DNA of 64,000 bases from Halorubrum sp. BOL3-1 (GTDB lineage Archaea; Halobacteriota; Halobacteria; Halobacteriales; Haloferacaceae): the NCBI RefSeq assembly GCF_004114375.1, contig NZ_CP034692.1:2046001-2110000 (forward strand), given 5' to 3'. Position numbers and translations under genes: made by a program. The first letter of the stretch is position 1. Every line of letters starts with the position of its first letter. Positions 54,491 through 58,516 of the stretch are shown in pieces. Under the pieces are notes generated by a model. It saw nothing but the letters and a program-made list of their open reading frames with translations, was not told where the DNA came from and made no database searches.

Positions 54491-54570
54491 CCGGTTCGGT
54501 CATAGATTCCGTAGGCGCGAGGCGTTCAAAAGCGCGGCGGGTCGACGGCCGCGACCGGCTGACTCTTCGG

Positions 54571-55128
54571 TTACTCCCGCAGTCGCTCGGCGTGCTCGAC
54601 GACGACGCGTCCCAGCGTCTCCGTGCGTCGCCGGACGTCGTCGTCCGTGATCTGCGGCTCGGGGCCGGGGTCCCCCGCGTCGCCCGTCTCGACGACCGAG
54701 GAGGCGTTTCGTATCCCGACCTCGTGGGGGACCGTCCACGCGTGGACGTTCCGGAACGTCGACCGGAGGTGTCCGAGCGTCCCGCCGTAGGAGCCGCCGC
54801 CAGCGGTCGCGAGCAGACCGACGGCCGTGCGCTCGTACTCCTCGGAGCCGCAGAAGTCGTGGAAGCTCTTGAACGTCGACGAGTAGGAGCCGCGGTACAC
54901 CGGGGTGCCCGCGATCACGCCGTCGGCCTCCCGCACTCGGCGCCTCAGCGCCTCGCTGTCGCCCTGCGCGTCTTCGTCGGGATGGTACAGCGGGAGGTCG
55001 ACGGCGGCCAGATCGATCAGGTCGGTCTCGGCGTTCGCGTCGGCCGCGGCGTCGAGCGCGACTCGGATCGCGGCCCGCGTCGTGCTCTCCGCCCGGCGGC
55101 TGCCGGAGATGGCGGCGATGCGTGTCAT
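54571..55128 (-). CDS. NAD(P)H-dependent FMN reductase
   Basis: A 185-residue flavodoxin-like NADPH:FMN reductase. It begins RIAAISGSRRAESTTRAAI (phosphate loop), then GVIAGTPVYRGSYSSTFKSFHDF and LLATAGGGSYGG. ATG 55128 is the start. The left end of the TnpB element lies only about 20 bp upstream, so its native promoter may have been displaced. Confidence 0.85.
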   Translation of the reverse strand: MTRIAAISGSRRAESTTRAAIRVALDAAADANAETDLIDLAAVDLPLYHPDEDAQGDSEALRRRVREADGVIAGTPVYRGSYSSTFKSFHDFCGSEEYERTAVGLLATAGGGSYGGTLGHLRSTFRNVHAWTVPHEVGIRNASSVVETGDAGDPGPEPQITDDDVRRRTETLGRVVVEHAERLRE

Positions 55129-55133
55129 AGCAA

Positions 55134-56535
55134 TACAAGGGGGAAACCCACGGCTTTAGCCGTGGGGGGAAGCCGACGTGGTGGGAAACAGCCACCGAGA
55201 AACGACAGTGTGACTCCCCCACGCTACCGTAGTATTTATAAATCTATACCTACTTTTATGAAGTATGGCGGAGGTGCGTCGCACGGTCGTCGTCAAACTC
55301 AACGTCGACGACAGCGACGCGACTCTCCTCCACGAAACCATCGAGGAGTATCTGTGGGCGTGTAACTACGTCGTCCAAGACGCATGGCAGGACGACTACA
55401 AACCGACGTCCAAGAACAAACTCCACGACCGGACGTACTCCGACGTGCGCGAACAGACGCGTCTCCAAGCGAATCTCGTCCAATCCGCACGCAACCGTGC
55501 CGCCGAAGCTATCAAAGGCGTTATCGCCCGCTGGCAGAACGGCAAGAAGGCGTCGCAACCGCACTTCACGACGCCTTCCGTCCGGTACGACAAACGGAGT
55601 GCGACGTTCCACGACGATCACGTATCGCTCTCCACGGTGAGCGGACGTATCGAAGCCGAATACGTCCTCCCACCAGAAGGTGACAACCCGCAGACGAAGT
55701 ACCTCTGTAACGACGAGTACGAGGTCACGGATGCGACGCTTCAGTACCGCGACGCGACGGACACCTTTTTCCTCCACATCGGAACGAAGGCCGACGTGGA
55801 GTCCGAGATACCGGACGAAGGCGACGCCGAGAACAGCACAGTCCTCGGCGTGGACCTCGGTATCGAACAAATCGCCGTCACGTCGACCGGGATGTTTTGG
55901 AGCGGCGGCTACCTCACCCACCGTCGTCAGGAGTACGAGCGCGTCCGTGGCGATCTACAGCGGACGGGTACGGAGTCAGCCCATCGAACGATCGAACGGA
56001 TGGGCGACCGAGAGAGACGGTGGGTAGAGGATTACCTCCACCGCATTTCGAAAGCTATCGTCCAAGAAGCCGTCGCGCACGGGTGCGACCGGATAGCGTT
56101 CGAGGAGTTAACGGACATCCGCGACCGGATGCCGGATGTAAAGAAGTTCCATGCGTGGGCGTTCCGACGCCTGTACGACTACGTGGCGTACAAGGCCGAA
56201 GGGGAAGGTATCGACACCACACAGGTAGACCCGGCGTACACGTCCAAGCGGTGTTCGAAGTGCGGGACGACGCTAGACGAGAACCGCCGGTCGCAAGCGA
56301 GGTTCTGTTGCCAGAAGTGCGGCTACGAGGTCAACGCAGACTACAACGCGGCGAAGAACATCGGATTTCGGCTACTCCGTGCGGAGCAAAAGTCTCCGCA
56401 CGGAGGGGCGATCAGTCACCTCGCCCTCAAGTCGGGGACGCTGAACGTGAACGGCGGCTACTCGCCTGCCTCTGAATAAAGGCCAGAACGGGAGTCCACC
56501 GACAAGCCCACCCCTTTAGGGGTGGGTTGGTGACA
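55134..56535 (+). mobile_element. IS200/IS605-type element carrying only tnpB (IS1341-like)
   Basis: Both ends have the subterminal hairpins of this family with 8-bp stems and the same TTTA loop: CCCACGGC / GCCGTGGG at 55147-55166 and CCCACCCC / GGGGTGGG at 56507-56526. No TnpA (Y1 transposase) is present, so movement would need one in trans. Exact cleavage sites are not known; the ends given are approximate. The element lies between the FMN reductase gene and repeat copy D. Confidence 0.8.
55265..56479 (+). CDS. tnpB: TnpB, RNA-guided nuclease of an IS605-type element
   Basis: A 404-residue TnpB. The RuvC site is complete: D197 in LGVDLGIEQIAV, E280 in RIAFEELTDI and D359 in VNADYNAAKNI. 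The zinc finger C330, C333, C349, C352 lies between the last two. TnpB is guided by an RNA made from the element's right end and cuts DNA at a TAM-flanked target, helping the element persist. The guide would be read from sequence just beyond the right-end hairpin near 56530. ATG 55265 follows the AT-rich TATTTATAAATC. Confidence 0.93.
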   Translation: MAEVRRTVVVKLNVDDSDATLLHETIEEYLWACNYVVQDAWQDDYKPTSKNKLHDRTYSDVREQTRLQANLVQSARNRAAEAIKGVIARWQNGKKASQPHFTTPSVRYDKRSATFHDDHVSLSTVSGRIEAEYVLPPEGDNPQTKYLCNDEYEVTDATLQYRDATDTFFLHIGTKADVESEIPDEGDAENSTVLGVDLGIEQIAVTSTGMFWSGGYLTHRRQEYERVRGDLQRTGTESAHRTIERMGDRERRWVEDYLHRISKAIVQEAVAHGCDRIAFEELTDIRDRMPDVKKFHAWAFRRLYDYVAYKAEGEGIDTTQVDPAYTSKRCSKCGTTLDENRRSQARFCCQKCGYEVNADYNAAKNIGFRLLRAEQKSPHGGAISHLALKSGTLNVNGGYSPASE

Positions 56536-56595
56536 CGTCGGATTCGGAGCGAAGTAGCAAAAACGGGGACGATTCGGAACCTGAGCGCAGTGGAC

Positions 56596-57022
56596 TGCGG
56601 TGGCGCGTGCCTGCGAGGCCGCCTCGCGGCCGAGCAGCACGCGCGAGGGAGTTAGCGGCGACCAGCGGGAGCCGCTAACGAGGCTGGGGAGGCGTGAGGT
56701 ACGGTTGCGGTCGGGTGGGACTCGAAGGGGCAGCCGGGAGGACGAAGCACGGCGACGGAAGCACCGCAGACCGCGAACGAAGTGAGCGGTCGAGGAGCGC
56801 ACCGAGCCGCGCGAGTCCTCCCGGCTGGGGCTTCGGCGGTCCCGGTCACAGTGTCGATCACGGCATCACAGATCCTGTATAGCTGGGGCTTCGGCGGTCC
56901 CGGTCACAGTGTCGATCACAGCATCACAGATCCTGTATAGCTGGGGCTTCGGCGGTCTCGGTCACAGTGTCGGTTCCGCAGTAGCGGTCGACTGAGGCTT
57001 CGGCGGTCTCGGTCGCCGTGAC
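56596..57022 (+). repeat. Modular intergenic repeat, copy D, with a tandem tail
   Basis: It begins TGCGGTGGCGCG and a nested hairpin (GCGCGTGC / GCACGCGC). A GTTAGCGG / CCGCTAAC hairpin follows, then the core at 56678-56699 and GGGTGGGACTCGAAGGGG. Next is a 13-bp stem CAGCCGGGAGGAC / GTCCTCCCGGCTG enclosing ~75 bases, then a tail. The tail CTGGGGCTTCGGCGGTC starts at 56825, 56883 and 56941 (58-bp units, the first two almost identical), with a degenerate fourth at 56992. The gene after it, the phosphohexomutase, starts 90 bp later. Confidence 0.85.
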
Positions 57023-57112
57023 GTCGACCGATCTCGCCACCCGATCGACCGGATCGAAAACCTCACACACGCGACACCGGGCATTATGAGCCTCGCCGTC
57101 AACGACACGCGT

Positions 57113-58516
57113 ATGGACCAGATTGCCTTCGGCACGGACGGCTGGCGGGCCACCCTCGACACCTTCACCGACGACCGCCTGCGGATCGTCGGGCAGGCGG
57201 TCGCAGACCACCTCGATGCGGCCGAGCACGACGGGCCGGTCGCGGTCGGCTACGACGCCCGCGAGACCTCGGAGGGGTTCGCTGAGAGCCTCGCGGAGGT
57301 GCTCGCCGGCAACGGCTTCGACGTGATACTCCCCGAGCGCGACGCGCCGACGCCCGTCATCGCCCACGCCATCGTCGCTCGCGGGCTGGCGGGCGCGTGT
57401 ATGGTCACGGCCTCGCACAACCCGCCCGAGTATAACGGCGTGAAGTTCATCCCGCACGACGGCGCACCCGCGCTCCCCGAAGTCACGGGGGACATCGTTG
57501 AGCGCCTCGCGGAGCCGGACCTACTGCCCGAGGCCGAGCGCGGCGAGATATCGCGCATCGACCTCGTGCGCGACCACGCGGCGGCCGCCCGGGAAGTCGT
57601 CGGAACGGCGCTCGGCGCCGACGGCGGCATCGACCTCTCCGGACTCACGGTCGCGTACGACGCGATGCACGGGAGCGGGCGCGGCGTCACCGACGCCCTC
57701 CTCGAATCCGCCGGCGCCGACGTGGTCCGCCTGCGCTGCGAGCGGGACGTGACCTTCGGCGGCGACTCGCCCGAGCCCTCCGCCGAACACCTCGAAGCGC
57801 TGGCCGAGCGCGTCACCGACCCCGGAAGCGACGTCGACCTGGGGATCGCCAACGACGGCGACGCCGACCGGATCGCGCTCGTCACGCCCGAGCGCGGCGT
57901 CCTCGACGCGAACCTCCTCTACGCCGCCTGCTACGACCGACTCTTGGAGACCGACTCCGGGCCGGCGGTCCGCACCGTCTCGACGACGTTCCTCGTCGAC
58001 CGGATCGCGGAGGCCCACGGCGAGTCGGTGTACGAGACCCCGGTCGGCTTCAAGTGGGTCGCGGAGGCGATGGGCGAGCGCGACGCGCTGTTCGGCGGCG
58101 AGGAGTCGGGCGGCTTCACCGTCCGCGGACACGTCCGCGAGAAGGACGGCGTCCTGATGGCGCTGCTCGCGGCCGCGACCCACGCCGACGAGCCGTTCGA
58201 CCCCCGGGTCGACCGCCTGCTCGACGAACACGGCCGGATCGCGGCCGGGAAGGTGTCGCTCGACTGCCCCGACGACCGGAAGGCGGGCGTCCTCGACGAG
58301 CTGGAGGACCACATCCCGGAGTCGGTCGACGGCCACGCGGTCTCGAAGGTCGTCACCCTCGACGGGTTCAAGCTCCTCTTAGAGAACGGGTCGTGGCTGC
58401 TCGTCCGGCCGTCCGGCACCGAGCCGAAGCTCCGCGTCTACGCCGAGTCCGACTCCGAGGGCGCCGTCGACGACCTCCTCGGGGCGGGCCGCAACCTCGT
58501 CGAACCGCTGATCTAG
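57113..58516 (+). CDS. Phosphoglucomutase/phosphomannomutase family protein
   Basis: Alpha-D-phosphohexomutase, 467 residues. It has FGTDGWRATLD at the N-terminus, the phosphoserine loop MVTASHNPPEYNG, the metal loop IANDGDADRIAL, the sugar loop FGGEESGGF and the C-terminal phosphate site VRPSGTEPKLRVY. ATG 57113 is chosen over ATG 57086 because MDQIAFGTDGW is the usual start. Glucose, mannose or glucosamine phosphate cannot be told apart here. Confidence 0.9.
   Translation: MDQIAFGTDGWRATLDTFTDDRLRIVGQAVADHLDAAEHDGPVAVGYDARETSEGFAESLAEVLAGNGFDVILPERDAPTPVIAHAIVARGLAGACMVTASHNPPEYNGVKFIPHDGAPALPEVTGDIVERLAEPDLLPEAERGEISRIDLVRDHAAAAREVVGTALGADGGIDLSGLTVAYDAMHGSGRGVTDALLESAGADVVRLRCERDVTFGGDSPEPSAEHLEALAERVTDPGSDVDLGIANDGDADRIALVTPERGVLDANLLYAACYDRLLETDSGPAVRTVSTTFLVDRIAEAHGESVYETPVGFKWVAEAMGERDALFGGEESGGFTVRGHVREKDGVLMALLAAATHADEPFDPRVDRLLDEHGRIAAGKVSLDCPDDRKAGVLDELEDHIPESVDGHAVSKVVTLDGFKLLLENGSWLLVRPSGTEPKLRVYAESDSEGAVDDLLGAGRNLVEPLI

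What the first reader, a model, noticed from the sequence alone, without database searches (positions are those of the whole stretch)
55134..56600. Intact TnpB guide nuclease upstream of an FMN reductase
All RuvC and zinc residues of TnpB are present. Ends carry hairpins with the same TTTA loop. The left end lies about 20 bp from the FMN reductase ATG, so the element may now control that gene, and the guide sequence after 56530 could target this or a sister site.
Basis: partly seen in the sequence, partly recalled or inferred. Interest (0 to 1): 0.5.

Follow-up and report, generated by a model that had tools for sequence, protein, structure and literature searches.

The report
TnpB element inserted at start codon
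A small mobile element carrying its own RNA-guided DNA cutter sits exactly in front of a gene's start codon in a salt-loving archaeon, and many of its relatives sit exactly on stop codons and put the stop back, which suggests that these elements settle at gene edges.

Summary
The element is 55129-56534 (1406 bp), a solo-TnpB IS200/IS605 (IS1341-type) insertion in a Halorubrum-like genome. RuvC triad and zinc ribbon are intact; both ends carry TTTA-loop hairpins; constraint and covariation mark an omega-RNA. The left end is 0 bp, not 20 bp, from the FMN reductase ATG: the element lies directly after TCAT (antisense of ATGA) and has moved the gene's native T-rich promoter box 1.4 kb away. The guide (from 56535) is the displaced native flank; in relatives' empty sites it has 2-14 mismatches of 20 (at most 5 in 7 of 29).

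The element alone is a new member of a known kind; control of FMN reductase is untested. More striking: in a sister class (TCAG left, GTTTAC right) 25 of 47 distinct sites fall exactly on C|TGA stop codons (background 30 of 879), and the right end supplies an in-frame TAA. A second class shows 6 of 30 versus 3 of 453. The window's own clade shows no significant start-codon excess (2 of 21 versus 18 of 346). Ten searches of an open-access library showed no report of this.

The parts
55125..55128 (+). TAM / insertion motif TCAT; its complement ATGA is the start of the FMN reductase gene
   Evidence: TCAT at the same place in the 29 relatives read (located the sites with a pattern that ends in TCAT); TCAT found at the left end of 28 of 35 clade loci with a recognised right end (duplicates included)
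55129..56534 (+). Complete element, 1406 bp, no target duplication
   Evidence: Empty-site comparison; the copy in another species is also 1406 bp, 1348 identical
55147..55166 (+). Left-end hairpin, loop TTTA
   Evidence: Fold, z -3.3
55234..55243 (+). ATTTATAAAT, TATA-like box 22-31 bp before the tnpB ATG; palindromic, so it could also fire outward
   Evidence: Sequence; function inferred
55265..56479 (+). tnpB, 404 aa RNA-guided nuclease
   Evidence: NF040570, Pfam, PDB alignment; triad and zinc residues
56384..56534 (+). Predicted omega-RNA scaffold (overlaps the tnpB 3' end); 5' border approximate
   Evidence: 4-fold sites nearly frozen in codons 374-398 (0.048 versus 0.154-0.468 in the 15 other 25-codon windows); covariation; fold z -3.2
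56507..56526 (+). Right-end hairpin, loop TTTA
   Evidence: Fold, z -3.9; compensatory changes
56535..56554 (+). Predicted 20-nt guide = native flank of the empty site
   Evidence: length of 20 assumed
56558..56564 (-). Displaced native promoter-like box (GTTTTTG on the minus strand), originally about 24-30 bp before the FMN reductase ATG
   Evidence: T-run or TATA at this place in 28 of 29 relatives by eye; promoter role inferred
54571..55128 (-). NADPH-dependent FMN reductase whose start codon abuts the left end
   Evidence: PF03358; same start in relatives

Best explanation
The feature is a solo-tnpB IS200/IS605 (IS1341-group) element. It was inserted, with no target duplication, directly 3' of TCAT; that TCAT is the antisense of the ATGA start of an FMN reductase gene. 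Shown: borders, TAM-like motif, intact catalytic residues, an RNA-level constraint at the right end, and a guide equal to the native flank. Inferred: TnpB processes an omega-RNA from the right end and cuts TCAT plus guide wherever the site is empty (after excision, or on a sister chromosome), so that repair copies the element back. Movement would use a Y1 transposase in trans, as the element has none and the genome has one. FMN reductase kept its start codon but lost its adjacent native promoter box. It is probably transcribed from the left end or by read-through; whether it is regulated by the element is open.
For: TnpB family and residues. Borders from empty loci and other copies. A copy 95.9% identical (1348 of 1406 bases, no indel) at another locus of another species, with 35 synonymous versus 10 non-synonymous codon changes: mobility in the past under purifying selection. 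Omega-RNA: (all 27 distinct right ends: 88.7% of cells paired; 9 of 15 pairs with a change on both sides; 39 such cells against 13.7 in shuffles, 0 of 500 as high). Guide with TAM absent elsewhere in the genome. One Y1 transposase in the genome.
Against: No RNA or cleavage data. No Rfam match. Guide mismatches at relatives' empty sites are many (median 8 of 20), so homing between species at this site would be weak. Two of the seven pairs of the upper helix fail in 12 and 14 of the 27 sequences. The one TnpA may not act on these ends: the ends of its own element are only partly similar.
Confidence: 0.85

Rival explanations
1. The element has been taken over as a regulator: TnpB or its left end now sets expression of FMN reductase (like TnpB-derived RNA-guided repressors).
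For: The left end touches the start codon and the native promoter box is displaced.
Against: The nuclease triad is intact, unlike the nuclease-dead repressors (recalled). The element is at this site in none of the 29 relatives read, so there is no sign of long co-evolution. Own-clade copies lie at unrelated genes or intergenic sites. The guide has no second target in the genome.
Confidence: 0.1
2. The start-codon position is chance plus purifying selection: TCAT occurs at many starts, and insertions inside genes are lost.
For: In the window's own clade, 2 of 21 sites are at called starts against 18 of 346 background TCAT (p 0.32); including near starts 4 of 21 against 25 of 346 (p 0.07). Nine or ten of the 21 sites lie inside called genes.
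Against: Pooled TCAT classes show an excess at starts (8 of 51 versus 36 of 799, p 0.003), though four of those eight are stop/start overlaps of class T2. By eye four of the 21 sites are clear starts (window, mevalonate kinase, lipoprotein-like, cytochrome P450), but the background was not judged by eye.
Confidence: 0.5
3. The stop-codon pattern of the sister classes is only a filter: stop codons are harmless places, so those insertions survive.
For: The right end supplies an in-frame TAA (GTTTAC read backwards is G TAA AC), which makes stop-codon insertions harmless.
Against: Outside genes alone the excess remains: 25 of 39 versus 30 of 343 (p 1e-14). Two TnpB lineages only 48.5% identical sit on the same stop codon of the same M50 protease gene in genomes whose flanks are 90-92% alike.
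Confidence: 0.4

Closest known systems
IS1341-group (solo tnpB) IS200/IS605 elements of haloarchaea (PMC3119063, passages read)
   Same: Solo tnpB, subterminal palindromes, no target duplication, short targeting sequence at the 5' end
   Different: Here the TAM, guide and omega-RNA are worked out from sequence, and insertion points are placed on codon boundaries; the passages I read do not mention that
ISDra2 TnpB and other characterised TnpB nucleases (PMC8612924, start of abstract in a search listing; details recalled)
   Same: RuvC triad, zinc ribbon, right-end omega-RNA with the guide from the flank (recalled)
   Different: TAM here TCAT; TTGAT for DraTnpB is named in PMC11043419 (passage). 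No adjacent tnpA
Sulfolobus islandicus IS605 TnpB7 (PMC11043419, passages)
   Same: Archaeal TnpB with a right-end derived RNA and short TAM
   Different: IS605 group with tnpA, predicted insertion site TTTAA, guide placed after TTCAC
Halobacterium omega-RNAs / sotRNAs (PMC12558985, abstract, outline and passages)
   Same: Haloarchaeal RNA at the 3' end of tnpB, with a predicted guide
   Different: Expressed there; expression unknown here

Membership tests
IS200/IS605 TnpB RNA-guided nuclease | RuvC triad D..E..D | tested here: met
   D197, E280, D359 invariant in 25 clade copies with a full-length frame (two copies with early stops left out) and aligned to solved Cas12f/TnpB-like chains
IS200/IS605 TnpB RNA-guided nuclease | Zinc ribbon CxxC...CxxC | tested here: met
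   C330, C333, C349, C352 in the window; C330 is also seen as Y in the clade alignment
IS200/IS605 TnpB RNA-guided nuclease | Omega-RNA at the right end, overlapping the tnpB 3' end | tested here: inconclusive
   Constraint and covariation support it; the RNA itself cannot be tested here
IS200/IS605 TnpB RNA-guided nuclease | RNA-guided cleavage next to a TAM | not testable with these tools
   No wet data
IS200/IS605 element | Subterminal hairpins, fixed 5' motif, no target duplication | tested here: met
IS605 group (tnpA + tnpB) | Adjacent Y1 transposase gene | tested here: not met
   The only Y1 match is at G000:C3:992992, 1.1 Mb away; so IS1341 group
Type V Cas12f effector | Curated Cas12f2 score | tested here: not met
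   131.6 bits against cut-off 450; CRISPR arrays not searched
Nuclease-dead TnpB-derived repressor (recalled) | Lost RuvC residues | tested here: not met
   Triad present

The most novel reading that the evidence does not exclude
Haloarchaeal solo-TnpB elements are codon-boundary elements. Their insertion motif is the antisense of a codon signal (TCAG = C|TGA stop; TCAT = ATGA start, or overlapping stop/start). Classes whose right end reads G TAA backwards settle on stop codons and put the stop back in frame. Their guide then lies in the conserved last codons of the host gene, which gives a harmless site with a conserved target for RNA-guided homing, as homing introns have. The window element belongs to a TCAT branch whose right end (GGTGAC) does not supply a stop.
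Probability: 0.6. Interest if true: 0.75.

Novelty: new member of a known kind. Interest (0 to 1): 0.5.

Why it matters
The window element gives a clean TAM-like motif, border and guide for a haloarchaeal TnpB clade, and a natural experiment in which a gene had its promoter box replaced at the start codon. The sister classes suggest how guide nucleases come to rest at persistent sites: where the insertion is silent (a restored stop codon) and the guide reads conserved coding sequence. That makes the open question of whether TnpB supports spread between strains directly testable in Haloferax.

Tried and rejected
Rfam gave nothing for 54500-57200 even at E up to 1. A second guide target in the own genome was not found. 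I first thought that the window's clade prefers start codons, because four sites looked so by eye; the automatic test did not support it, so I dropped that claim for this clade. I looked for a TATA box in LE at leaderless distance from the ATG and saw none; the hairpin loop lies there. I considered that the one TnpA of the genome mobilises the element; its own element's ends are only partly similar, so this stays open.

Limits of the counts. The gene caller is a GC3 heuristic of mine; with the stricter settings it called 71% of 464 kb coding, so it misses genes (there: 100 of 2232 TCAG at called stops, 91 of 1902 TCAT at called starts). Searches used looser settings. Only loci with both ends recognised were used there: of 176 loci, 68 were class S, 44 T2, 35 T1, 8 other and 21 without a recognised right end; after removing duplicates and loci without a recognised left motif, 47, 30 and 21 distinct sites were classified. 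Requiring the left motif leaves out copies with another motif (for example L018 with TGAT, L044 with TCTG). Sites may share descent: the 25 stop sites include two pairs at the same gene end. A test without the left end: of 61 distinct class-S right flanks, the minus-strand coding frame ends exactly at the junction in 36, is another frame in 3, and is not detected in 22. A further clade-1 copy on a Halobellus plasmid, with no annotated gene start next to it, was not in the tally. Of the 38 RE-side ORFs listed, chosen because they looked like gene ends, 30 were scanned with Pfam: 29 had a match at E up to 0.001, two of these (L036, L233) below every curated cut-off. The structure tested was drawn by me from these same sequences; one search used 22 of the 27 distinct right ends and left out a copy with a broken hairpin (L103), so I repeated it with all 27 and quote that.

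Guide comparisons used the best 30 loci of 51-52 genomes with a match (for the FMN reductase site 29 relatives plus the own genome), the query differs per gene, and coding ends are compared with a non-coding flank, so the difference in conservation is expected in part.

Literature: ten searches of the open-access library were answered; most subscription papers and bioRxiv are not covered. I read passages only of PMC3119063, PMC7290912, PMC4983044 and PMC11043419, and the abstract, outline and passages of PMC12558985; everything else was seen as search listings or recalled.

Full report
What is there. The window lies in a 3.67-Mb haloarchaeal genome, G000:C3:2046001-2110000. tnpB is 55265-56479 (+), 404 aa, and scores well above the NF040570 cut-off. 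The triad D197/E280/D359 and the four zinc cysteines are present. Fifteen further TnpB-like matches lie in the same genome, two of them pieces of one broken copy, but only one Y1 transposase match.

Borders. The FMN reductase site was compared with the same site in genus relatives (all 52 genomes, the own one included, have some match; 29 relatives' loci were read). In these 29 the FMN reductase start reads TCAT on the + strand (the pattern requires TCAT and found it in all 29). In the closest ones TCAT is followed by the sequence that continues, in the window, after the right end (L049: 2 mismatches in 20; L052: 3; L047 and L071: 4); in distant ones little similarity is left (up to 14). The element is therefore 55129-56534, inserted between TCAT and its native continuation. 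The other copies of the clade (83-98% identity) mostly show the same left motif TCAT (28 of 35 loci with a recognised right end, duplicates included), TGAT in L018 and unrecognised left ends in others, and the right end GGTGAC. One copy in another species is 95.9% identical over all 1406 bases.

Omega-RNA. Among 25 clade copies with a full-length frame, four-fold degenerate sites differ in 15-47% of comparisons along tnpB but in 4.8% in codons 374-398, and in 2 of 933 comparisons in the last six alignment columns. Two hairpins, one with the tnpB stop codon in or near its loop and one at the right end, covary over all 27 distinct right ends: 9 of 15 pairs have a change on both sides, 39 cells against 13.7 in shuffles, 0 of 500 shuffles as high. 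Two pairs of the first hairpin are unpaired in 12 and 14 sequences. This shows selection on RNA or single-strand DNA structure; the terminal hairpin may serve TnpA, omega-RNA, or both. Rfam has no match.

Guide and target. The 20 bases from 56535 equal the native flank. At the 29 empty sites they have 2-14 mismatches, median 8, at most 5 in seven. In the own genome TCAT plus the first 16 guide bases occurs, within 3 mismatches, only as the element's own junction, where TCAT is replaced by TGAC. So the occupied site lacks the TAM and an emptied one would have it; cutting itself is not shown.

FMN reductase. In 28 of 29 relatives (by eye) a T-rich or TATA box lies about 24-30 bp before the ATG, as expected for leaderless transcripts, which are 72% of protein-coding transcripts in Haloferax volcanii (PMC4983044, passage). 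The insertion moved that box to 56558-56564, 1.4 kb from the ATG. LE has no TATA box at that distance, but a palindromic ATTTATAAAT at 55234-55243 could serve both tnpB and outward transcription (inference). If such genes are needed, the insertion must leave them expressible (inference).

Codon boundaries. I classified the rejoined native sites of TnpB relatives with a GC3-based gene caller and used all other copies of the same motif in the same flanks (400 bases at each edge left out) as background. Class S (TCAG left, GTTTAC right; 45-65% TnpB identity to the window): 25 of 47 sites are exactly at a C|TGA stop, background 30 of 879, p 3e-21; outside genes 25 of 39 against 30 of 343, p 1e-14. 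Read on the host gene's strand, the right end is G TAA AC, so the stop is restored in frame with at most the last residue changed. Class T2 (TCAT; right end CTTAC or CCTAC): 6 of 30 at an ATGA stop against 3 of 453 (p 3e-6), four of them overlapping stop/start junctions; 6 of 30 at starts (the same four included) against 18 of 453 (p 0.002). Class T1, the window's clade (TCAT, GGTGAC): start 2 of 21 against 18 of 346, p 0.32; stop 1 of 21 against 4 of 346, p 0.26. So the stop pattern is significant in the two classes whose right end supplies a stop and not in the small class whose right end does not. The start pattern is significant in T2 and when the TCAT classes are pooled (8 of 51 against 36 of 799, p 0.003), not in the window's clade alone.

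Checks on the stop pattern. Without using the left end, 61 distinct class-S right flanks give 36 with the coding frame ending at the junction, 3 with another frame and 22 without a detected frame. Pfam finds families in 29 of 30 ORFs scanned, chosen as likely gene ends, two of them below every curated cut-off; several domains run to the junction, for example DUF7110 2-188 of 188, Sec61-beta 120-160 of 160 and universal stress protein 1-138 of 139. The last two of these were not counted as stops by the caller, so it misses some. Of the best 30 loci at the M50 protease end, 22 read CTGA, 6 have another stop context and 2 show an element's end there, one being the source locus; at the GlmM end 26 of 30 read CTGA. 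The window's own GlmM ends in TAG and lacks the motif. Two elements with TnpBs 48.5% identical occupy the same M50 stop codon in genomes with 90-92% identical flanks, and two with TnpBs 69% identical occupy one HerA-like gene end. Guides at the M50 and GlmM ends are better conserved in relatives (median 3 and 2 mismatches of 20) than the window's guide (median 8); coding against non-coding sequence explains part of this.

Verdict. The assigned element is an intact, ordinary member of the haloarchaeal solo-TnpB elements with a well-defined TAM-like motif, guide and predicted omega-RNA, placed exactly at a start codon. Its control of FMN reductase is possible and untested. The stop-codon habit of its sister classes is, as far as my ten searches of open-access papers show, not described; its cause (homing to conserved gene ends, or survival of harmless insertions) is not settled.

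Noticed in passing
L030, L034, L036, L041, L042, L045, L131, L149, L211, L248 and others: Class-S TnpB elements sit exactly on stop codons of conserved genes (GlmM, M50 protease, Sec61-beta, HerA-like and others) and restore the stop as TAA.
   Followed up: yes
L045 and L131; L211 and L248: Divergent TnpB elements (48.5% and 69% TnpB identity) occupy the same stop codon of the same gene in related genomes; a third genome (L290) also shows a class-S end at the M50 site: recurrent sites.
   Followed up: partly
window 56824-56972: Tandem repeat, period 58, 2.6 copies, 97% matches, between the element and the GlmM gene.
   Followed up: no
window 56592-56620: A 20-29 nt word (GGTGGCGCGTGCCTGCGAGGCCG) dispersed over the genome, about 38 further matches; also at the empty site of L047.
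   Followed up: no
L005/L006 (G000:C3:772814-777023): A broken class-S TnpB (one in-frame TAA) in the same genome; its right-flank gene (EamA-like) ends at the junction stop.
   Followed up: partly
L204 and L021 (G116): Two clade-1 copies in one genome with TnpB stopped by TGA after codon 211.
   Followed up: no
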